Source: Lucifuga dentata (taxonomy: Eukaryota; Chordata; Actinopteri; Ophidiiformes; Bythitidae). Taken from it: a stretch of DNA of 64,000 bases. The DNA lies in NCBI GenBank assembly GCA_014773175.1, contig VXCM01000203.1:428929-492928 (forward strand). Reading direction: 5' to 3'. The position numbers and the translations under genes were made by a program. Shown here one piece after another: positions 5,494 through 47,400 of the stretch (position 1 is the stretch's first letter; each line of letters begins with the position of its first letter). The notes below the pieces were generated by a model. The model was not told the origin of the DNA. It saw only the letters and a list, made by a program, of their open reading frames with translations, and did no database searches.

Positions 5494-6627
5494 TTTATTT
5501 CAATAGTATGCATGGAGAATGTTCTGTGGTGTAAGTGTGCTAACTCTGCAAATGAGTAAGGTTAAATGTTAGCTAGAAACTGAGCAGGTTGGCAAAAGTA
5601 CAACATTGTGGTTTTGATATTCTTCAAACCCAGAATGCCACACCCTGTGAATCATTCACCACTATACAGACAGACTGAGCATAATGGACAATGCTTGTTC
5701 GTTCTCATGTTTTCTTCTCTTTGTATAGAAAGGCGTAAGAGCACAGTACAGATTTTTTTTTTTTTAATGTAAGGGCTATTAAATGCTTACAATATGTAAC
5801 AAGGCATCAAAATTGTATTTAAAAACGTTTAGTGGATTGCTGAGATTTGACGATTCTTATTATTCCAGTCCTAATTTAATTACTGTACAGTTAAAACAAA
5901 TACTGACTTATGCTGAAGCAATAAAAAAATTAACATGCAACATTACATGAACACAAGACAAACAGTGTATTAAAGCAAAATAGGAACTTGGTCAGTCATA
6001 TTCAGGCAGTGTCGGTAACTCCTCGCTCCTCCTCTTCACACCATTCTGCGGAGTTTCACAGGAATACTGTTTCACCGCAGGCCAAAACTACGCCCATTCA
6101 ACAGTCAACAGCTTCAAGATAATTATTGTGATTTGGAAGCTGAGTAGAAGTCAACCAAAGGAGGGCTCAGACAAAGCATTTTTAATATATTACCCTTACA
6201 TTCTTTATTCATTTTTGTATTTGTTTAAAAAATATATTCAGAAAAAAGCAGGCACACCAATGCAAAATCTTCTCATTAGCTGAGAACATACAGTAGATTT
6301 TTAGTAAACCACAAAATATCCAAACTTAACCTGCGGCCCTTTTCGGTACAATATTAGTATAATAACCACTATTCATCTGCAAAACAATGGATTAAAAAGC
6401 AAAAATGTAATACACTACATGATGCATGTACATCTGACTGTGTACTTTTCAGTGCAACAGACTTTTACCAAAAAGCAGTAAAGAAAAACCAAAGCATGAG
6501 CAGCAGAGTGTGCACACAATGACGACGCCTTTGTTCATTTTCCTCATTCATGCTCAGAGCTTGGTAACATCCTCTTGTTACATCCTGTACCATGAAGAAT
6601 AAACATCATTATCCTGAGGTTCATTGT
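5494..6627 (-). promoter_or_regulatory. Probable desmocollin 3' UTR with two poly(A) signals
   Basis: Downstream of the stop codon on the minus strand, AATAAA hexamers (TTTATT on the plus strand) occur at 6204-6209 and 5494-5499. The second sits in an A-rich context typical of a cleavage site and would give a 3' UTR of about 1.15 kb. Which one is used cannot be told from sequence. Confidence 0.4.
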
Positions 6628-10700: not shown

Positions 10701-12276
10701 GGAGCTGAGAACTCTGGACCTTCGTCGACATTGCTGACAGATACATCGATAGGAATGGAAACCCATGTGGCCTTAGTGCCGCTCAGCTCCGCTTGGTTCC
10801 GCGCCATGATCTCAAGCTTTACATTTGGGTTCTTCTCATAATCTAAGGGCTGGGGAAAGAAAAAAAAAAAAAAAATNAAAAAAAAAAAAAAAATCAGAAA
10901 ATGAAATGTGTTTTAAATACAAATCTGTTCTCACTGTTGAGTCAGAAGAAGAAATCCTGCTTACCTTCGAAACATACAGAAGCCCCTCGTTTGTTCTGGA
11001 GTCTGTTTCCATCCTGAAATTTCCGTTCTCGTTTCCTTTAGTGATGACAAACTGTGTAATCCAGTTTGGCGTGTTTATTAAATCTTTGTCTTCAACTGGA
11101 ATTCGGAGGATGAGAGTTTCCTTTTCGTTCTCTTTAATGTTGACATTATACTGGAGGACAAAGACCACAAAATTAAACTGTCATCCATTCTGTAACACAA
11201 GTTCCATACACACTAAATAGACCACTTTACCTTCACAAATAGTAATAAAGTGATCATATAAATGCACCTGTTATATTTTATTTTGTAGTGTCAAAATGAT
11301 GCAAAGCAGCCTTTTGTCAAGATTTGTTAATCACTTACAGAAGCCTCTTTGAATGTCGGCGGGTTGTCATTGATATCAGTAAGAATAATGGTTGCCGTTC
11401 CCGTGTTGGACCGACCATTTGCTGCACCAAACATGTCTTTGATTTGTACTGTCACCAAGTATTTGTCTTGTACCTGAAGAAGAAATGGGTTTGTAATTAT
11501 AAGGCAGATGTCAAAACAAACCATTTGTGTCCTCTAATAACAACACCTCTGAGTTTTATTGTGGCGAGTGGAGTTTCCTGCCTCATTACTAATGCTAACC
11601 ACTTCACCGTCCAGGTTCCAAATGCTGAATGACTCGCTAGTGCAGTGGTGAAGATGCTCACCTCTCTGTCCAGGGTGTTGACATTTGTTGTGATGACACC
11701 TGACTCCGGATTGATGGTAAAGAGGTCTAACGCAGTCAAGAGTGAATACTTGATCTTGCTGTGGAGTGTCTTTATATCATCTCTGTCTGTAGCATTCACC
11801 TTCCCCACCACTGTTCCTGTGGTGTGAAACATGATCAGTGGTGTCATATCCACACGGAAGGTCATATTTTTAATGGTATCAAGCAACAAAAAGCCTTCAT
11901 AAATTATCCCAATAGGATGACTTTTATTGTGAGCCACTTGCAGGAAGTGAACTATGCATTTAACAGAGTATGAATGTAAACTGAGGTAGTTTGATTTAAT
12001 ATTACATGATAACTATATTGAAATATTATCGTTTTCATTTTTAAAAAAAAAACAAAAAAAAAACTGCTGCTTGTGTAGAATTAAGCATGTTCAATAACTG
12101 ACATTAAACATAAAATACATTCTCATTTTCTAAATGATGACCTACAAAGTAAAATCAGCATCAGCCCATTTTGAACTATAGAAAGCGTTTCAGACATACA
12201 GGCTTTATACTGAAAGTTTGTGCATCTTGCCCAAGCACACAGTTAGGGAGCAATGTAGTTACATTGTCCATGTGAC

Positions 12277-22708: not shown

Positions 22709-24306
22709 ATGGCTCCTCTGCGCAAATTCAGCTTTGTTATAGCGCTGCCATTCTTCCTAACGGTGAGTATTTAAACCGGTATTTTGCACAAAGTAGGTTA
22801 TTCGTCGTCTTTATTCTAGCGGACCTCACAGGTGTGGTTCAGGTTGGGTAAAAGTAAAACGATGAGACTAAAAAAATGCACGCCCGCAAACGCAACATTC
22901 ACATTTGGGGTGTGAGCCAGCAATGTTTTCCATATAGCTTCCCTGAATTACAAAAGCCTAAGTAGTCTCAAGCACAATTTTGAAGGAGTTTTCCTTGTCA
23001 TAGCTGTAGAATTTAAAGGAGATGGTTTAAGTAGAAAAGTTAGAGGAGTTTTAAAGTGGGTGATGGTTGTGAATGTGTTGTTATGCATCATTTATTATGC
23101 CATTCAGGTGTAAAGTTAAAAAAAAAAAAAGAGGAGCACACATTTTGCATTTGAGAGCATAAAATGAACAATAAAGCTTGCACCATCCCTTATGATCTAA
23201 GTAAGATTGGTTTGGCATCAAAATGTTTTGAGTTTTAATAATGAGCACACACAAGTAACTGAGCTTTTTCACCCTTTCTGTGTACCTGCAGCTTGTTTCT
23301 GAGGCAAAAGGAAATGGACTGGAGCTAAAGAGACAGAAAAGAGAATGGATCATTGCTCCCAGAAAACTGAAGGAGAACCATGACTACACTGGCCTGGAGA
23401 GTATTTCTAAAGTGTGTATTACTTTAATGTTTAACTTCTTTGTTCAGAATTCTGTCAAATTTTATGTTTTACATTGTTTCTCAAAACAATCATGTGACTT
23501 TCTCCCTTTAAAAAAATGATTGCATTTTCCAACTCACTGATTATGTCCTCAGGTCACATTTATTTTTGCTAAGCCTCTATGTGAGAATTAGAAGTATTGT
23601 AGGTGCTGGCAAACTGCCATAGTAGTAATGAGTCACTTTAGACAGTGGACGATGAACGCACCCTTGTTCTGTGTTTTAGGCATACACACCTGTGTTTGAT
23701 GTTATCATGTTAGTCTCGTTTCCAGAGAAGTATTGGTCCAGAGAAATCATTATGAGATTGAATCAATTTAAAAAAAAACTTAGTGTGGTTCTATGTTTGT
23801 GGAAAGTCATTGATGCCAACTATCAGTTGTAAAACAAACATGCATTCCATTTCTGTGTGCTGGCATGTCACAGATTTTCAGATTCAGTGGCTTACTGTGT
23901 ATGTATATGTCTTCCAGATTCGTTCCGATAAGGAAAACTTCACAAGGATTTTCTATTCGCTAACAGGGCCTGGTGTTGACCAGGACCCTATTGGTGTATT
24001 TAGTGTCAACCGTCAAACTGGTTTCGTGAAAGTCCACTTGATTCTGGACCGAGAGGAGTACTCCTCCTACCATGTAAGAACAACCGTAAATTCTCATTCA
24101 ACATTCACAATTATACCTGCAAACTGCTCTGTGAGAAAATGATATCTCTTTTCTAGTTAAAAGGCATGGCACAATACGCTAATGGGAGCTATGCCGAAAA
24201 GGATATCGACCTTAAAATTACTGTTGTGGATGAGAATGACTGCCCACCAGTGATTCAAGCACAGCAAGCCGGATATGTCAATGAATCTAGTGCAGAAGGT
24301 ATTTAA

Positions 24307-24344
<38 letters not shown>

Positions 24345-27300
24345 ACAACAAAAGTAACTGCCCATTCTTTAATCACACAAGTGATTTTCAGCACTGGTAA
24401 CTGATTTAGTGGCGATCTGTAGGAACTTTTGTCATGAAGGTGATAGCGACCGATGCAGATGAACCCAACACGGCGCACTCTCAGATCTACTACACGCTTG
24501 TAGAGGATAGTTCCACGGCTGGGATGTTTTTCATCAAGCCTCACACTGGAGAGGTCATGGTCAGACAGAACACTCTAGACAGAGAGGTGAGGCACTTCCG
24601 ACCCCACATTATGCTGAAACGATTAAAGGAAAATGCAGTCGGATGCGGATGTACTTCTAGATGTTTATTTGCTATGAAAGTTTGATATCACACAGTAAAG
24701 CTCACAATCACACCATTCAAATTCTCCATTCAGGTTATCATTTCTCATAACTTTTTGAGTAATTCTACTAACAAGTAAACAATCAACAGACATGAGTGAA
24801 AAGATAGCTTTCATTTTATTTCTGATATAATTTTTCTAGAAACAAGACACTTATACATTGACCGTTAAAACAGCTGACATGAATGGACAAGCAGGAGGAA
24901 ACACAGGAACGGGAAACGTTATGATTAAACTCCTGGACATAAATGATAACATTCCAACCCTGGAAAAAGAATCGGTACGTGTGACACAATTTCCACAATC
25001 AATGCCTTTATCATTCTTTACCAGATTATTTAAAAATGTTTGACAGTATTTTGTGCCCTAAAGCGAATATGTGTGTGTACTGTATGTGTGTTACATTTTC
25101 AGTATGAAGGGAGTGTTGAAGAGAACACTATCAATGTGGAAGTGATGAGGATCAAAGCCATTGACCTGGATCTGATGTACACTGAAAACTGGCTGGCTGT
25201 CTTCGAAATTGTTTCTGGGAATGAGGCGGGCTATTTCAGCATCACTACCGATTCTAAGACCAACGAAGGAATTATTATGATTCACAAGGTAAAAGAGGTT
25301 TGCTAACACGGTCTAAATTTAATGATATTGCTATTACTGATATACAAAATAGCAGGAGTAAACATTATGGAACCCTATGATGAACTGATAAACTGTTTGT
25401 CACCCTTAAATTTACAGGCCCTGGACTATGAAGAACTAAAGGTGCTCAACCTGGAAGTGTCTGTCTCCAACAAAGCAGAGTACAACTTTGGCAGTGGAGT
25501 AACAACAGGTGGTATAACCCCAAAACCCAAACCCTACCCCATTAAAATCAATGTGATCAACCAAAAAGAAGGCCCTCATTTCCAGCCAAGTATCAAAGTA
25601 GTGACGATCTCTGAGGACCACACCTCCATCTCCATCAACAAGGTCATCGCCAACTATGCAGCCATTGACAGCGATACATTAAAGACCACCACCAATGTCA
25701 GGTGTGGTGAAGGATTTATGGCAGATGTACAGATACACATCTCTCTGTCTGTCATTCACAGAAATATCTTGTTTGTGCTCATGTTTCATTAATTTCAGGT
25801 ATGCTAAACTCCGTGACGAAGACAACTGGCTAATTATTGATGAAAAGACAGCAGATATCAAACTGAATAAGCTGCCTGATAGAGAGTCCAAGTTCTTGGT
25901 CAATGGAACATATTTTGCCAAGATTATATGCATCACCAATGGTATATACTGGAAACATGACAGCTACCATTAATCTGTCTGGTCATACTAATGTGGTGCA
26001 CAGCAGGTTAATTTCTCTGTCTTTGTGCTTTCAGATGTTCCAGGAAAAACTGCCACAGGGACCATAGCCATTCAGGTGGAAGACTTTAATGATCACTGTC
26101 CAAAACTGATCACAACAACTGGAACCATGTGTCTCGAGGATAATGTAGTCTTTGTCACAGCTGTAGATGAAGATGAGTTCCCCAATTCAGCACCATTTGA
26201 GTTCACTGTGATTGAGAAGGAAAGTAAGGGGAAATGGACTGTAGAGCATCTTAACGGTAAGAGCAGTTTGGAGCGAGTAGAGGAGTTTTTAGACAAACTT
26301 AATCTTTAAACTGCGGTTCAATCTTTAACTCCAAATCATTACTGCCATAATCTGTGGCTTTTAGAAACCAAATGGCTTTGCCAATGGTTGCATTAATGTT
26401 GTATTTTCAGCAATAGTGAGATAACTACACTGGACAAGCTTTATTTTTTATAAAATGTACATCGTTTATGTCTTATTGTTTCTTGAAAAGTCTTTTGTAG
26501 TCTTAGCTGGATCTCATCCATAAAATTAAGGTGGTTATTATTATATAGCAAAATGAAGTTCTTCAAGAGCCAACAGGTTTTCTTGTAACTGATGCAGCAA
26601 ATTTTAATGTCTGCATCGCATCTTTCTTCAGAAACCTCAGCAATTCTTCGAGACCATGCAGATTTGTGGCCAGGCACCTACAAAGTGACGCTGGAGATCA
26701 AGGATCAGCAGGGAAAATCATGTGCTGACATCCAGATGATGGACATCATTGTGTGCAGCTGCCATGAAACCACTAAAACCTGTATGAGCCGTATTACAAA
26801 GACTGTAGGCTTTGGTGCTCAGGGTGTCCTGCTGCTGCTTCTGGGATTGCTGTTGCTGTTGTGTGAGTTGAGAACATGTTGTTACTTGTTTGTACTCTCT
26901 CTCTGAAAGATGAAAGATTGCATAATATAATACGTTGTTTTATTGGATTAACTTGAACTAAGGCGTGTCACGGCCTATTTTGGAAAGAAATAAATCAAAT
27001 CTGTAATGTTATTGCATTTCCTGCTTTTTTCCAATGAGCTGAATCAAAGTAGGTCAGTGATGGGTGGTTTGACTTGACTGTTGTACACAACTTTACTTTT
27101 ATAAGATTTTCTTTTGTTAAATATGTGAAATGGGCCTATTTTTCAGTGGTGCCCCTCTTGCTGCTGTTCTGTCTGTGTGGAGGTGCAGCAGCTATGGGAG
27201 ATTTTAAGGCCATCCCATTTGATACTAAACAACAGCTGATCTCCTATCATACTGAGGGACAGGGAGAAGACAAGGTACTTTTGTTAGCGTAGCTTTGAAA

Positions 27301-28947
27301 CATGGAAGTAATTCTCAATTTGTTATCTTTCTTTGTAATAATCCACATTTTGTTTGCCTGAAGTGCTGCAGTTCTGACAGGGTCTCACATTTCCCTCACA
27401 GGACGTTCCTCTCCTACAAGTCCCAGTCGAAGTCGACCATGGGACAATTCCAGCTAAGGATATCAACAACTTCAGGGGGAAGGGGTTTGTTGGAGGACTT
27501 CAAGGAGCAGGAGCTGGTGAAGGAGCAGGTTTTGGTGGTGGCGTAAATACGACCACAATAACAGAAAACATGCATCGGTACAACCAATATGGCCACTCCA
27601 GTGGGCATTTGGAGATGGGCTACATGGGTGGAGGAATGATGACAGGACATGAAAACGCTTTCTCCCGATACAAAGCTGAGGCATATAATGGGATGGCCCT
27701 GTCTGATCATTTTCTGCAGGAGTACTATTCAAGTGTAAGTACCTGGAGCTATAAAGCCAACTTGTAGCTTAAAATAATCATATAGAGATGATTTCAAGGA
27801 GAAGCAAAAGAATTCAAGAATACCTCACAAGATTTACCTGTTACGTACAATTCAGCCAGATTTTACAGTATAATACATATTGTAAGTTAAAGTTGTATTA
27901 TGGTACCAAGCAATGTCAGTATTGAATTTACACTTGAACATAATGTGTTTTTTGCAGAAAGCTAACCATGCTGCACAGCAAGCCCAGCAGAAGGATGCTC
28001 TATCGGTCTATAACTATGAGGGTCAGGAATCCCTGGCAGGTTCAGTGGGCTGCTGCAGCCTTCTTGAGAATGATGACGATCTTGCATTCCTCAATGACCT
28101 TGGGCCAAAGTTCAAAACCTTGGCAGAGATTTGCCAGGGCTCCACCCTGGTGACCGAGTCTGTGGATGCAGCAGTATCAGTCTCTCTGCCCAGACCGGTG
28201 TCTCCTGCCAGGCCATTCACCTCCACGCACACACACGTCCATACTCATACAGAAAAAATTAGGGACAGGGAGCATGTCAGTGTCAACACCCTCAACACAT
28301 CCAATGTAGCTTCTGAATCCTCCACTGTCATCCAGGAGGAACGACTCACTGAGAGAGCCCAGGGATCCGCCACCATTCCCAAGGTACATGTCCAGGACAA
28401 CATTGTGATTCCCAGTCAGACACTGCTCATACAGCAGCCTGCTATGTACTACGCTGCCATGCCCATGTATGTAGTCGAGTCCAAGCCCCAAATGGTCCTT
28501 GTGGCAGGTGGCACACAGCAGGCAGTGGGTCAAGTGGGGTTCAATCAGGGGTTGGTTCAGGTCGGAGGCATTCAAGGTTCCCAAGGTGTAGTGCTTGTAG
28601 AAAGGCAAGTAGCACAACATAAGTCACCACCATCAGCACAAGTGCTGGTGATGGAGAGTGGGTCAACGGCTTCAGGTGCTGCAGAGAGTGGTATACGTTT
28701 AGCACAAGCCTTTGTCCAGTCAGGGCAGGGGTCTGCAGGGTTGGGCTTGGAGGTCAAAGGCCAAGGTGGACAGGTGAAAGCTCAGCATATTTCACTGAGT
28801 TCCAACTCCCAACATTGTGCCACAGCGTCATTTGAAGACTCTGGGCTGACAGCCACACCCAAGGTTCAAGGCAGCAAGAGAGTAGTTGTGCAACATAAAA
28901 AGGTGTCAGTGACAGAGAGAAACATTGAAACTGGTACAAGAGCATAA
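22709..28947 (+). CDS. dsg2: Desmoglein (desmoglein-2-like), complete 14-exon gene
   Basis: Desmosomal cadherin that binds desmocollin across the gap and plakoglobin in the plaque. Exons: 22709-22762, 23292-23411, 23918-24073, 24157-24298, 24423-24586, 24840-24974, 25103-25288, 25418-25701, 25799-25941, 26035-26256, 26632-26862, 27147-27274, 27402-27734, 27958-28947. They sum to 3288 nt, or 1095 aa plus stop; human DSG2 is similar in length. The start ATG begins [18 protein letters not shown], a signal peptide. A short propeptide ends at RQKR (32-35), leaving EW as mature residues 1-2. Calcium motifs include LDREE, DENDCPP, LDRE, DINDNIP and DFNDHCP. The membrane span is near residues 592-626. 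The catenin-binding [11 protein letters not shown] lies at about 815-825, followed by a desmoglein-type C-terminal extension of about 270 residues. The family is certain; the paralogue name follows fish usage and is less so. Confidence 0.93.
24310..24342. repeat. (GT)n microsatellite in desmoglein intron 4
   Basis: An uninterrupted GT run begins only about 10 bases after the GTATTT donor of exon 4 (ends 24298), in a 124 bp intron. Length changes here could alter splicing distance; no effect is visible in the sequence. Confidence 0.95.
27402..28947 (+). CDS. dsg2: Desmoglein intracellular exons 13-14 (linker, catenin site, C-terminal extension)
   Basis: Exon 13 (333 nt) is the intracellular linker and has a Gly-rich patch ([17 protein letters not shown]), then a His/Tyr/Met-rich part. 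Exon 14 (990 nt) encodes [31 protein letters not shown], then a Thr/Ser/Val-rich region with a short [10 protein letters not shown] patch. It continues with [17 protein letters not shown], as in desmoglein terminal domains, and ends with a VTERN motif resembling the VTER repeats of desmoglein repeat-unit domains. Repeats are few and degenerate compared with mammalian DSG2. Confidence 0.85.
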
Positions 28948-35149: not shown

Positions 35150-38700
<3,551 letters not shown>

Positions 38701-42419: not shown

Positions 42420-44016
42420 TCATGACGATGCCGCTCCATTGATAGCATTGTTTTCTGTGCTAGTACTGTCTCTGATGAAAAGGACACCAGAGTCTATGGG
42501 GGAGGAGACGGTGCAGTCTATTACAGAGACGGGAGTCGGATCTGTGGGGTCAGAATCTGTGATGGTAGGTGGTACTGTGTCTATGACAAGGGAAGCAGCT
42601 GATCCCAGCGTGGGCTGAGCAATGTCTGCGACAGTCAAAACTGCAGATTCTGGAGTGGAGGTGTATACAATGTCTGTGATGGGGAGAATGGTGGAAGATG
42701 TTTCAGGGGTGTTGACAGTATCTATGACAGGAGGAGTGGAAGAATCCACTGGAGGCGCAGGGCCTGAGTCAATGGGTGGAGGAGTAGTGGGTGAAGGGAA
42801 AACAGTCACTTGGACAGGGGAAGTGGGGGGATGAAGGGCATCATTAACACAGAAAGAGGTAGAGTCCAACTGTGGCAGTATGTCAGACTCTGTGTGGACA
42901 TCTCTAGTTGAGGGTGTCAATAAACAGATAGCAGCTTCTGATTCTTCTGCTGATGGGGATTCTAACTGAATGGGAATGACCAAATCTGTGCTGACGGAAG
43001 GTGGGAGGCCAGTGGGAATGCTGCAGTCTAACACAGGAACAGGAGAGGGAGGGGCACTGTCATGCATAGATGGAGTAGGGGAGCCTGTTAAAGGCTCAGG
43101 GGAAGCCTCTAGTAAAGGTGGACTGGTTGAGTCAAAATTTGGGGTGATATCATTGATGTCATTGACCACATGCTCAGGGGATTCTAACATGGAGCTAGGA
43201 GAGGGATCAATGACTGGCGTGGTGCAGACTAATATGGAGGTAGGCACAGTCTGAGAAGGAGAGGGGGTAGGGGAGTCCGCTGAAGATGTCAGGTGAGTTT
43301 CAGCAGCAGGGGGAGTCGTTGCCTCTTTTGTAGGGGAAGAACCAATGTCATTCATTTCAAGAATGCTAGAATCTATGGATGGTTTGACAGAATCCATGAC
43401 TAATGCTGAGGGTTCTTCAGCATTTGCCAAAAGTGGATCTGTGACACATGAGCCTTTGTGTAAAGGAGTGGAAGAAAGCAGGTGCTCTTTACTGACATGG
43501 ATTATGCCATCTTTAGCCAAGGGTGTGATAGGAGTCATGGGTATGGATGAAACCGAGTGCCCATTGGTGCCTTTGTGCTCAGGCTTGCTTAACTGGACTG
43601 CTATGGAAGTGGGGACTGATATATCTATGGCTGATGGAGCAGTCAAATCCACAGCTGAAGAGGCAGTGGAGTCCATAGTGGACACTGCAGTAGCAGCTGC
43701 CTCGTGGAGTGGAGTGTCATGCACCCTGGTATAATCCCTGCTGCTCTCAGACTGAGCCAGGAGGAGGTGCTGTTCTCCAGGCTTCCTTGGGGCGAGAAGA
43801 GGCTGGCGAGTGTAGCTTTCGCCATCAGCCAATGTCTCAGGGAGGGGCTGATAGCGTGTTTCAGGCAACAGTAGAATGCAGATGATGCAGATCAGAGTGC
43901 AGCAGGCAAAGATGACATGGTGAAGGAAATAGCCCTTCTGGTTGTGGAGCTCCATGATGGGGGCAGTCAGCATGCCAAAGCCAGCGCTGGCCAGGACCAG
44001 GCCCAGACCACCACCC
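42420..44016 (-). CDS. slc22a23: slc22a23 last exon with long Ser/Thr/Pro/Asp-rich tail
   Basis: The exon opens in the last membrane helices (GGGLGLVLASAGFG, then YFLHHVIFACCTLICIICILLL) and the SLC22A23 post-helix region (PETRYQPLPETLADGESYTRQPLL). After about residue RVHDTPLHEAAA it runs on for roughly 420 residues to the TGA. This tail lacks hydrophobic spans. It is built from imperfect units of the form hydrophobic-D-S/T-x-x-P (VIDTVNTP, VDSSTPPV, VLDCSIPT, VIDPSPSS, VIDTVPPT). The mammalian protein, as I recall it, ends a few dozen residues after the QPLL region. The frame stays open with no stop across more than 1.2 kb. Confidence 0.88.
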
Positions 44017-44474: not shown

Positions 44475-47400
44475 GGGACAGCTAATTTGCACAACATGTG
44501 GATTATATTTGACACTGAACTGTGAGAGTCTGTGTTGTTTTCAGCCATCTAATGATTTCATTCCCTCCACCTTTAACAGGAGGTGGAGTAGCCAATTCCG
44601 TCTGCAGGATCTGGTAATGAGGGGAAATCCACCACTGCATGTCAAAAATCCTGAGCCAAGATAATAAATAACAAGCATACAAAGGACACTATCATAAACT
44701 TTCTGCACCCTGATGGCTTGGTGGCTTTTCCTGTGACTCAGAAATAGATGATAGTTATAATTATCATAATGTTAATATGCACAGGACATGTCCTGTGTTA
44801 TGCATAAAATCATTTTACTATGCAGATATGCACATTTCCTCCTCCTTGGAGCCCTCTGATGGTGCAGTCTCAGCAGTATTTTTCAATGGGCTCACCTGAT
44901 CACAGTGGGTGTGATCTCAGCGCAGAAAAAGATGCTCAGGTTGCTGACTGCGTGGGAGGAGAACATACCAATGATGGAGAAGGCAATGGAGAAGTTCCTA
45001 TTCAGCGTATCTGAGCGCTCTACAAGTAAAGCAAGAGACACACAGATGCAGCAGTTTGCACAGTGCAGCACATGTAATTAATAAATGTCCTAAATACGAG
45101 CCTGAAAGAATTATTTGGTGCTTTTGTTTTGTACGATTACAATGATTTTCAAAACTGTACTTTGAGAAAAACCTACAGGTCATCTGCTAATAAACCCTGT
45201 TAAATTAATGCCATTAAAAGGACCATACCAGTGGTTTTGCATATTTGAGCCAAATGAACAATCCACGTACAAGTTCCATTTCTGATGGCATTTGATGGAG
45301 CTTTAAATTTTACAAGTGTTTTTCCTACCTTCCAGACTGCCATTGGTTTCAGTTAATTCCAGTAAGCTATTTAAATCAACTTGTAGAGACTTGAAATGTG
45401 CTTGAGATACGTAATCCATCACAGCAAACACAATGTTTATTAAATTTTTTTTTGTCAAAGTAACATAATTTAACTGGTCCAACACAGACCTACATGGATG
45501 AAAATGTATGTCTCTTCCAGGGAATACAGCACCAGGAGAATACAGCTTTTACAGAGAAATTAAAAAGTGCCATGTCCTCTAAATTGGGACCTACATGGTA
45601 GCAGGCAAAACACTGAATTTTAAAGTGGATGTATCACCTGAACATTTGATTTTGAAAGATTGGAGGATTTCTCCAAACAATATGAAAATTAAATTACAGT
45701 TTTATGTTTTGGAAATTGGCTGTCGGTATTGTAAAGTGTATGTTGGTAGTATAGATTTGGCGCTTAAACATGGAAAATCACTGGATTGTCCTTTAAATAT
45801 TCCCAGCACTAATGTTTATCTTGGTCAGCTAGTGAGGATTAAGATGACATATGCAGCACATTTAGGATGGTCTGGATGTGAATTAGACATGTAGACGCTG
45901 GCATTAAGAGGATCATATGAAACCACTGTGTGATTAGGTCTAGTCTCAGAGAGGAGGATTAGTGAGGAGAGAAAAAGAGAGCTCAACAGAGGACAAACAC
46001 TGGCTGTGAGGTTCAGTTTACCCTATCACTGAAGTCCATCCTCTCCAATACAAAAGGGAGAAATAAGTAAAAAGTAAAAACACAATTACATTTCATTATT
46101 TGTCTCTGCAGGGTTTGTATACGGGGTTTATATTGCAGAATATCTGCATTCAGCACATTTTGTATAACCTAATCAAGACAGGCAACAAACTAAAGATTAA
46201 AAATGAACAGAAGTAAACAGAGGATCCTACCTATATTTAGTTGGACGCTGTACTTCCCCAGCACTAGAGGAGAAATAAGGAGAGCACAAAAGATATGAAC
46301 AGGTGAGCTACACAGGCATAAGCAGAAATAGTAAAATATTCATATGCACTTTGAAAATATATTATATCCTGTGTTGAACATTTAAAAATATGCACATATG
46401 TTTATACAACTTCTAAGTGAACATGAAACACATGTGCACAACCTTGATGTGTTGATTCAGGTTAAGCATTACATTAAGCTCCTTTGTAACTGAATAAACG
46501 GACTCATGTACGGTTTTTGATCATCTGGAGCACTCTTGGTACACATTGACCAAATCAGCATGTTCGACTATTCCGTTAGAAACAAATGAGGCAAAGAAAT
46601 GTCCATTTACAGCACTGACTCATAATTGAATCATTTTAGGAAATTTCATAAGTAAAAAAAAAAAAAAAAAAAAAAAAGCTTAGTAGGTGCTATATCAAAA
46701 CAGTATAGAAAACATGTTACAATATGTATTTATTTATTTAAACTCCTAATATAAGGTGGAGTGGGTCACCTTGCCTTAGAGAGATACTCTTACAAAACTC
46801 TTTTATTTACATTTTTATTTAGATTTTTATTTGACCTTTATTTAACACTGGCCTCACCAATATATCAGCAGATATTTTCTTATCACAGGTACTGCATATT
46901 AGTACTGGTGAATATGTTAGGAGATATGGGTATGTGATATGAAATTGCCTGCCTTTGGGATTGCAAGTGAAAAAACTTGCATGTTAGTGGGTTTAAATCA
47001 GCTAAATTTGGTTGAAAACAGAATTTTAAACAGCATTTCAATAACTGTATTTCTAGCATGTATGTCAATGACCTGACATACACTGAAAATAGGCATTAAG
47101 ATGTTGCTAAAACATTCTAGATGTCTAACAAATGTTCCCTTTTTAATGAAATGTGGTCTGCATAAAGGTGGGCTAAATGTGTCAGTTGCTAGGATGTTTT
47201 ACAGGCTGCATTTTGATGTATAATTATTTTCTTAATTTAAGTATTTTGTTATGTTTTCCCGTGAATTTCTGAATTTTACTATTAAAAATTTACCTAAATA
47301 ATGTATCTCTCACATCTCTTTAATAATCAGTTTATCTGCTGTACTTTTTTTTCCTCAAATATTAGTTTCAAAATATCAGCTTCAAAAATGCAGGATCTTG

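What the first reader, a model, noticed from the sequence alone, without database searches (positions are those of the whole stretch)
42420..43740. slc22a23 carries a ~420-residue repeat-like disordered tail
Seen: one open frame runs from the last membrane helix to a TGA, adding about 423 residues of Ser/Thr/Pro/Asp-rich sequence with recurring hydrophobic-D-S/T-x-x-P units. Known: mammalian SLC22A23 ends a few dozen residues after the QPLL segment. Inference: a fish-specific C-terminal expansion, perhaps a phosphorylation or scaffold region, on an orphan transporter.
Basis: partly seen in the sequence, partly recalled or inferred. Interest (0 to 1): 0.75.

Follow-up and report, generated by a model that had tools for sequence, protein, structure and literature searches.

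The report
Repeat-grown insert in fish transporter tail
In many modern bony fishes, one of two copies of an orphan membrane transporter gene carries about 400 extra, floppy, strongly acidic residues that grew from a short repeat inside the protein's tail, a partly conserved change of unknown function.

Summary
In detail: the last exon of slc22a23 (minus strand, 44016-42420, TGA 42420-42422; Lucifuga dentata, P0001) stays open for 479 residues past TM12. It is no Lucifuga oddity: of 148 proteins listed in two searches, 141 have a usable tail, 247-566 residues, median 452. A tree of the membrane part puts the 18 sampled long forms in one clade, 100/99. Sampled sturgeon, bowfin, bichir, tarpon, moray, arapaima, tetrapods and percomorph b ohnologues are short. 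It is not readthrough past the old stop: the ancestral C-terminal peptide (...ENxTANGVxSS) still ends the long proteins, so about 400 residues were inserted inside the old tail. They carry an 8/16-residue period in most tails tested (24/48 bp in Lucifuga DNA); Salvelinus has a near-perfect 16-residue array. The insert is predicted disordered and acidic (net -43), with conserved islands in a fast-changing body. Function is inferred only: a phosphorylation-tunable acidic tail beside two old sorting-like signals. Against: five truncated or frameshifted models, and one trout a-type model without the insert. Six paper searches showed no description of it.

The parts
42420..44016 (-). last coding exon of slc22a23 (a-type ohnologue), 531 codons plus TGA
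   Evidence: AG acceptor, open frame, identical to the end of P0001
43758..43775 (-). EQHLLL (residues 578-583), acidic-dileucine-like signal of the old tail
   Evidence: position. [DE]...L[LI] occurs somewhere in 133 of 141 long and 118 of 120 short tails; the tighter EQxLLL-like pattern in 112 and 118. Sorting role recalled, not tested
43722..43733 (-). YTRV (residues 592-595), Yxx-hydrophobic-like signal of the old tail
   Evidence: position; DYxx-hydrophobic-like pattern in 132 of 141 long and 118 of 120 short tails
42465..43703 (-). inserted repeat-derived disordered segment, residues 602-1014 (about 400 residues more than short forms; the first residues, EAAA, are probably still old tail)
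43632..43703 (-). conserved island EAAATAVSTMDSTASSAVDLTAPS (residues 602-625), built like the 8-residue unit
   Evidence: EAA.T..STMDSTASSA.DL same residue at 70% or more in both sampled clades; M[DE]STASSA[VIA]D in 99 of 141 long and 0 of 120 short tails
43431..43514 (-). conserved island KDGIIHVSKEHLLSSTPLHKGSCVTDPL (residues 665-692)
   Evidence: [TEK]DPLL somewhere in 112 of 141 long tails and 0 of 120 short; not kept across both clades
43176..43241 (-). conserved island TSILVCTTPVIDPSPSSMLESP (residues 756-777)
   Evidence: (mainly euteleosts), position
42645..42689 (-). conserved island ILPITDIVYTSTPES (residues 940-954)
   Evidence: LP[VI]TDIV in 86 of 141 long tails
42486..42518 (-). 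conserved island DCTVSSPIDSG (residues 997-1007), the best kept new motif
   Evidence: SSPIDSG in 124 of 141 long and 0 of 120 short tails; TVSSPIDSG kept in both clades
42423..42464 (-). ancestral C-terminal peptide, TSTENNAINGAASS (residues 1015-1028)
   Evidence: best match to the short-form C-end profile in 126 of 141 long tails, Lucifuga included
44896..45019 (-). penultimate exon of slc22a23 (TM region), in frame with the last exon

Best explanation
Best supported: this is the a-type teleost ohnologue of the orphan transporter SLC22A23. About 400 residues were inserted inside its old cytosolic tail, between ...RDY[ST]RVHDTP[LV]H and the old C-terminal peptide (...ENxTANGVxSS), by growth of a coding tandem repeat with an 8-residue unit (24 bp), often as a 16-residue dimer (48 bp). 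The sampled distribution fits one origin before the split of Otocephala and Euteleostei; the array has since decayed in most tails looked at and re-expanded in char. The product is a predicted-disordered, strongly acidic Ser/Thr/Pro tail with a few constrained islands. Inferred (about 0.35 likely as the main function): the tail sits just behind two sorting-like signals (EQxLLL, YTRV) and works as a phosphorylation-tunable polyanionic spacer and docking strip that changes internalisation or turnover of the a-copy, while the short copy keeps the ancestral behaviour. The confidence below is for structure and origin, not for this function.
For: One open frame and exact match to a deposited protein. 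Usable long tail in 141 of 148 proteins listed by two searches. Short tail in 120 of 120 rows listed by a search limited to shorter proteins, 60-124 residues after the last helix, median 66. Old C-terminal peptide kept: the last 14 residues are the best match to a profile of 16 of those short forms in 126 of 141 tails. One clade of the 18 long forms sampled, 100/99, in a tree of the membrane part. Periodicity at lag 16: z 17.5 in Salvelinus, 10.5 in Aplochiton, 7.2 in O. keta, 6.2 in Centroberyx, 5.4 in Chanos, 4.5 in Siniperca, 4.4 in Osmerus, 3.8 in Lucifuga; DNA lags 24 and 48 bp in Lucifuga. Exact unit steps: two S. namaycush models differ by one 16-residue unit, Salmo trutta and S. alpinus by 96 = 6 x 16. 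The tail matched only itself in its own genome. Twelve rows labelled lgn hold 959-1015 aa proteins on contigs of 3.3-6.4 kb, while the Lucifuga gene spans about 31 kb. Net charge -43 in Lucifuga, median -40 over 141; S/T-P sites median 21.
Against: Lag 8/16 is weak in 4 of the 12 tails: Ctenopharyngodon (z 1.3/1.0), Oryzias (1.8/0.9), and at lag 16 Alosa (2.2) and Lampris (2.0). Over 48 disjoint pairs, indels of 4 aa or more are not enriched for multiples of 8 (13 of 89, 11.1 expected); unit steps show only in a few close pairs, and other salmonid pairs have other steps (26, 28). Only 41 of 413 insert columns, a few old-tail columns included, hold the same residue at 70% or more in both clades. 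Five models are truncated or frameshifted (P0112, P0075, P0138, P0090, P0082); an a-type model of Salmo trutta (P0223, 11 member sequences) has no insert, either a splice variant or a model error. In 15 of 141 tails the C-end is not the best window. 55 of 175 rows were not shown. No codon-level test of selection, no protein evidence, no functional data.
Confidence: 0.88

Rival explanations
1. Stop-codon loss: the tail is former 3' UTR read through after the old stop was lost.
For: The addition lies wholly in the last exon and reaches the end of the protein.
Against: The old C-terminal peptide is at the new end, not in the middle: best window of its own tail in 126 of 141; clupeid AATANGVASS and euteleost TENNTVNGVASS line up with tarpon SENSTANGVRSS.
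Confidence: 0.03
2. Neutral padding: a coding minisatellite that grew in a tolerant disordered spot and is kept only because in-frame loss is rare; no function of its own.
For: Most insert columns diverge (mean top-residue frequency 0.63 in 34 euteleost rows against 0.95 in the membrane part); lengths vary 247-566; some models are truncated or lack the insert.
Against: Islands kept across sampled Otocephala and Euteleostei (STMDSTASSA, TVSSPIDSG), a net acidic charge in all 141 tails (-18 to -58), and no tail under 247 residues among the 141.
Confidence: 0.3
3. Phosphodegron tail: the terminal DSGxxS motif recruits beta-TrCP and times destruction of the a-copy.
For: SPIDSG followed by [ST] after 2-3 residues in 68 of 141 long tails; the degron pattern itself is recalled.
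Against: Lucifuga reads DSGVLFIRDS and does not match; the salmonid and smelt ends printed read such as DSGILPVMD or DSGLLPVTD and lack the second Ser. The better conserved part is SSPIDSG (124 of 141).
Confidence: 0.1
4. Prediction or assembly artefact: a chance open frame fused to the transporter by gene predictors.
For: Two models in the family are fusions with a tubulin gene (P0121, P0128); one Salmo trutta a-type model has another end (P0223).
Against: Homologous tails in 141 listed proteins from many assemblies and from transcript-like contigs.
Confidence: 0.01

Closest known systems
SLC22A23 of tetrapods and non-teleost fishes (P0267 chicken, P0157 bichir, P0156 bowfin)
   Same: Same membrane part, an (R)QPLL or KPLL stretch, EQxLLL, a Yxx-hydrophobic-like stretch (YSGL, YSGI, YSKV) and a C-terminal ...TANG... 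peptide.
   Different: Tail is 66, 67 and 71 residues after LLLPE in these three; no insert.
slc22a23 b-type ohnologue of Lucifuga (G000 contig C4670)
   Same: Exon-by-exon matches to the a-copy and the same tail start, RDYSRVHDTPLH.
   Different: Tail 90 residues after LLLPE (counted on the frame), Ala-rich, ends CALANGVQAS; no acidic insert.
piccolo b of teleosts (Nonet 2012, PMC3484663; abstract, outline and one section read)
   Same: A repeat expansion confined to one of two teleost ohnologues, with copy number changing between species.
   Different: There a zinc-finger exon was amplified 8-16 times; here a 24/48-bp unit grew inside a single exon and codes no known domain. The author wrote that he was not aware of another extensive domain amplification in one of two teleost ohnologues, and noted esyt1b (9 C2 domains against 5) as a lesser case.
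adcy9 ohnologues of teleosts (PMC13356687; abstract and outline seen)
   Same: One ohnologue of a membrane protein differs from the other in its C-terminal control after the teleost genome duplication.
   Different: There one ohnologue lacks the hallmarks of C-terminal auto-inhibition, and function was assayed; here one copy gained a segment and function is unknown.
SLC22A17 (PDB 9il4)
   Same: Best-scoring solved relative; matches residues 126-576 of P0001.
   Different: No listed chain's best stretch reaches beyond residue 576.

Membership tests
SLC22A23 (SLC22 / MFS) | MFS / sugar-transporter fold | tested here: met
   Pfam Sugar_tr residues 163-557 E 1.9e-22, MFS_1 E 1.6e-14; the 31 PDB sequences listed are SLC22 or other MFS proteins
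SLC22A23 (SLC22 / MFS) | Orthology to SLC22A23 rather than SLC22A17 or A31 | tested here: met
   By similarity only: rows that carry a gene name are named SLC22A23 / S22AN, the rest are hypothetical, uncharacterised, unnamed, MFS-profile or contig rows; two other loci of the genome match at 47-52% against 75% for the b copy. No tree with SLC22A17 or A31 was made
SLC22A23 (SLC22 / MFS) | Short C-terminal tail ending ...TANG[VM][KR]S[SM]-like | tested here: not met
   The end peptide is recognisable but the length is not met: 479 against 60-124 residues in the 120 short rows
SLC22A23 (SLC22 / MFS) | Transport activity or substrate | not testable with these tools
   Orphan transporter (PMC11356391, title and passages seen)
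one-ohnologue repeat expansion (piccolo b type) | Two ohnologues, only one expanded | tested here: met
   Lucifuga a on C163 long, b on C4670 short; percomorph b P0205, P0185 short; tree of 33 rows. That they stem from the teleost duplication is inferred; synteny was not tested
one-ohnologue repeat expansion (piccolo b type) | Repeat units changing in number between species | tested here: met
   Salvelinus against Salmo 96 = 6 x 16 residues; S. namaycush models 16. Not general: 13 of 89 indels are multiples of 8, 11.1 expected
one-ohnologue repeat expansion (piccolo b type) | Unit is a folded domain on its own exon | tested here: not met
   Single exon, no Pfam match in the tail at E 0.1
intrinsically disordered region | Sequence predicted disordered | tested here: met
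beta-TrCP phosphodegron | DSGxx(x)[ST] in this protein's terminal island | tested here: not met
   Lucifuga reads DSGVLFIRDS; 68 of 141 long tails match SPIDSGxx(x)[ST]

The most novel reading that the evidence does not exclude
After the teleost genome duplication one SLC22A23 copy was turned into a transporter with a built-in multivalent regulatory strip: a coding minisatellite seeded between a sorting module and the C-terminal peptide grew to about 400 residues, was captured by selection at a few islands (STMDSTASSA, DPLL, SSPIDSG), and now controls where or how long the protein stays at the membrane, so that the two ohnologues differ by regulation and not by substrate.
Probability: 0.3. Interest if true: 0.7.

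Novelty: new variant of a known kind. Interest (0 to 1): 0.52.

Why it matters
It is a datable case in which a repeat grew in only one of two duplicated genes, left the old C-terminal end in place and then became partly constrained across a very large fish clade. The unexpanded ohnologue is a natural control, and Salvelinus shows the array still changing by whole units, so birth and capture of a disordered region can be studied in one gene. It also warns that 'fish SLC22A23' means two unlike products; in rats, loss of this orphan transporter gives a lean, hyperactive phenotype with a small hippocampus (PMC11356391, title and passages seen).

Tried and rejected
Stop-codon readthrough was considered and dropped when the short forms showed the same C-terminal peptide. 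A dispersed repeat or transposon origin was dropped because the tail matched only itself in its genome (that search scores only the best candidates). A beta-TrCP degron was considered and dropped as the general function. PPxY (1 of 141), PDZ-type ends (6 of 141) and runs of four K/R (0 of 141) were counted and not pursued. A general enrichment of indels in steps of 8 was tested and not found (13 of 89 against 11.1 expected). Pfam and PDB gave nothing on the tail. dN/dS was not done: I had no DNA of the relatives, only proteins. Paper searches: SLC22A23 (173 papers, 25 listed); with teleost (6); with intrinsically disordered (1); Lucifuga dentata with genome (6); two on repeat expansion (4 and 2). 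None of the titles or abstract starts listed, and none of the passages opened (PMC4982206, PMC11356391, PMC10339062, PMC4633038), describes the tail; 148 of the 173 were not listed. The zebrafish SLC22 paper (PMC4982206, passages) reports slc22a23 as one-to-one with other vertebrates; the passages do not give its tail length. PMC4633038 (passages) only says that fish SLC22A23 and A31 may have diverged in function.

Rows dropped before counts: P0112, P0075, P0121, P0128, P0138, P0090 and P0082 of 148; P0112, P0075, P0090, P0082 and, for lack of a start motif, P0039 of 120. The C-end profile used 16 of the 120 short rows; periodicity was run on 12 chosen tails (on 12 chosen, 2 of which failed for lack of a start motif). 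The tree used 32 chosen proteins plus the Lucifuga b copy. The codon shuffle was cut one base out of frame; one search repeats it in frame over the insert and C-end (z 4.4 and 3.8 instead of 4.9 and 4.2).

Full report
What is there. The finding's coordinates hold the tail-coding part of the last exon of slc22a23, on the minus strand. The frame is open from 44036 to a TGA at 42420-42422. Eight upstream exons were found in the window; the last exon starts at 44016 behind an AG acceptor. The script began the short exon 9 two bases early and lost the frame; 46263-46231 restores it and agrees with the deposited protein. Exon 1 lies beyond the window on the same contig, about window 73048-73500, so the gene spans about 31 kb. 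The last exon equals the end of a deposited protein of Lucifuga dentata, P0001, LDENG_00008070, 1028 aa. 479 residues follow LLLPE at the end of the last helix. Pfam matches end at residue 557 and matches to solved structures at 576.

It is conserved. A search scored on the last-exon part gave 620 hits with the best 120 shown; the rows that bear an organism name are fishes. A second search, limited by query length to proteins of about 783 aa or more and scored on the membrane part of the other ohnologue, gave 175 hits with 120 shown. Together they list 148 proteins. After dropping seven (five truncated or frameshifted, two fusions with a tubulin gene) 141 remain, with 247-566 residues after LLLPE, median 452. 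They come, by names in the listings and recalled taxonomy, from percomorphs, beryciforms, gadids, Lepidogalaxias, salmonids, smelts, Aplochiton, herring relatives, milkfish and cypriniforms. Twelve rows labelled lgn hold 959-1015 aa, the longest contig of each being 3.3-6.4 kb (one of them, P0090, lacks the very end). I read that label as assemblies of sequencing runs (recalled); if the gene is as long in those fishes as in Lucifuga, such contigs can hardly be anything but spliced transcripts, so membrane part and tail are expressed in one frame. Against this, one a-type model of Salmo trutta (P0223, 694 aa, 11 member sequences) follows the salmonid long forms up to DYTR and then has another end without insert: a splice variant or a model error.

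It is absent elsewhere, as far as sampled. A third search, limited to proteins of about 225-716 aa and using sturgeon pieces, gave 907 hits with 120 shown. All 120 have 60-124 residues after the last helix, median 66; P0223 is the 124. They include sturgeon, paddlefish, bowfin, bichir, tarpon, moray, Aldrovandia, Arapaima, amphibians, reptiles, birds and mammals. By design this search could not show full-length long forms, so the complement is: among its 120 shown rows the only named one from outside the fish groups above is a sturgeon model fused to tubulin. It ranked third, so a long form of gar or a tetrapod should have ranked high. 55 rows were not shown, and proteins of about 716-783 aa fall between the two searches. 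Zebrafish and catfish were not named in any of the three lists.

One copy of two. Lucifuga has a second slc22a23 on contig C4670 whose tail is 90 residues and ends CALANGVQAS. Pampus (P0205) and Mastacembelus (P0185) have such short b copies too, the latter without the ANG end. A tree of the membrane part only (33 chosen rows, 554 columns) puts the 18 long forms in one clade at 100/99, split into Otocephala and Euteleostei, with one change of the label. The b copies, elopomorphs and Arapaima fall together only weakly (82/65), so whether those early teleosts kept the a-copy is open. That a and b stem from the teleost genome duplication is inferred; synteny was not tested.

An insertion, not an extension. 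Short forms end SENSTANGVRSS (tarpon), LDNNTANGVKSS (bichir), SENTTANGMKSM (chicken). Long forms end TENNTVNGVASS or, in herring relatives, AATANGVASS. A profile of the last 14 residues of 16 short forms was slid along each long tail: the terminal 14-mer was the best window in 126 of 141 (rank 2-3 in 6 more, 7 or worse in 9, the worst 287), where one in about 380 is expected by chance for a single tail. The rows are related, so 126 is not 126 independent tests, but the six Otocephala and four euteleosts printed in that call all rank first. The new stretch thus lies between ...RDY[ST]RVHDTP[LV]H and the old end. Tarpon, moray, Aldrovandia and Arapaima show small Ala-rich growth at the same spot.

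Grown from a repeat. In 12 chosen tails, residue autocorrelation against shuffles peaks mostly at lags 8 and 16: z at lag 16 is 17.5 in Salvelinus, 10.5 in Aplochiton, 7.2 in O. keta, 6.2 in Centroberyx, 5.4 in Chanos, 4.5 in Siniperca, 4.4 in Osmerus, 3.8 in Lucifuga, but 2.2 in Alosa, 2.0 in Lampris, 1.0 in Ctenopharyngodon and 0.9 in Oryzias. In Lucifuga DNA the two strongest of 149 lags are 24 and 48 bp, z 4.4 and 3.8 against in-frame codon shuffles (4.9 and 4.2 with out-of-frame triplets). Salvelinus alpinus has seven near-identical units like VESTPSSVVDPSTPPV. Two S. namaycush models differ by exactly one unit; Salmo trutta and S. alpinus differ by 96 residues, six units; Osmerus and Hypomesus by 48. 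The two namaycush models are isoforms of one locus, so allele, splice or assembly effects are possible. Against a general rule, 13 of 89 indels of 4 aa or more in 48 disjoint pairs are multiples of 8, where 11.1 are expected: the array looks live in a few lineages and decayed in the rest. The tail matched only itself in its own genome.

Constraint. On 115 aligned tails the conservation is in islands, about residues 602-625, 665-692, 756-777, 940-954 and 997-1007. Between 34 euteleost and 7 Otocephala rows, 41 of 413 insert columns (a few of them old tail) keep the same residue at 70% or more in both, mainly STMDSTASSA.DL and TVSSPIDSG, against 344 of 403 in the membrane part; the middle islands are not kept across both clades. 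SSPIDSG is in 124 of 141 long and 0 of 120 short tails. The body evolves fast. The insert is net acidic in all 141 (-18 to -58, median -40), K/R median 2.7%, aromatic median 1.0%, S/T-P sites median 21 with a range of 4-35. A simple disorder scale puts 68% of Lucifuga tail windows above a threshold that 4% of core windows pass.

How it may work (inference). The MFS fold leaves both ends in the cytosol (recalled). Short and long forms share an EQxLLL-like stretch (112 of 141 long, 118 of 120 short) and a DYxx-hydrophobic-like stretch (132 and 118); such patterns elsewhere direct endocytosis (recalled). The insert starts right behind them. I think a phosphorylation-tunable acidic spacer that alters sorting or half-life of the a-copy is the most likely main role, at about 0.35; neutral padding is nearly as likely.

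Known or new. Database models of about 1000 aa exist, so the sequence is public. None of the titles and abstract starts listed in six searches and none of the passages opened describes the tail; 25 of 173 SLC22A23 papers were listed, and subscription papers are mostly not held. The nearest parallel is piccolo b, where one of two teleost ohnologues amplified a zinc-finger exon; its author wrote that he was not aware of another extensive domain amplification in one of two teleost ohnologues, and named esyt1b as a lesser case (PMC3484663, abstract and the section on other examples). I rate this a new variant of a known kind.

Noticed in passing
window 35150-37020, minus strand: Beta-tubulin exons (recognised by eye against the tubulin part of P0128) lie downstream of slc22a23; the sturgeon model P0121 and the Brachionichthys model P0128 fuse slc22a23 with a tubulin, an annotation trap.
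   Followed up: partly
window 11497-12012 (minus) and 23762-28947 (plus): Open frames that read like cadherin repeats and a desmosomal-cadherin cytoplasmic end (by eye; no family search made).
   Followed up: no
P0115, P0117, P0118 (Salvelinus), tail: A near-perfect 16-residue (48-bp) coding array, possibly polymorphic in char; a possible marker and a live minisatellite in a membrane protein.
   Followed up: partly
P0223 (Salmo trutta, 694 aa): An a-type model that leaves the long forms at DYTR and ends without the insert; splice variant or model error.
   Followed up: partly
P0112 Merluccius polli, last part of the protein: The model turns into SSPSSLFxFS repeats, as if the tail were read in another frame; a real frameshift or an assembly or model error.
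   Followed up: no
G000:C4670 exon 8 of the b copy (L005, near 5690-5944): A stretch of exon 8 appears twice next to an unknown base, probably an assembly seam.
   Followed up: no
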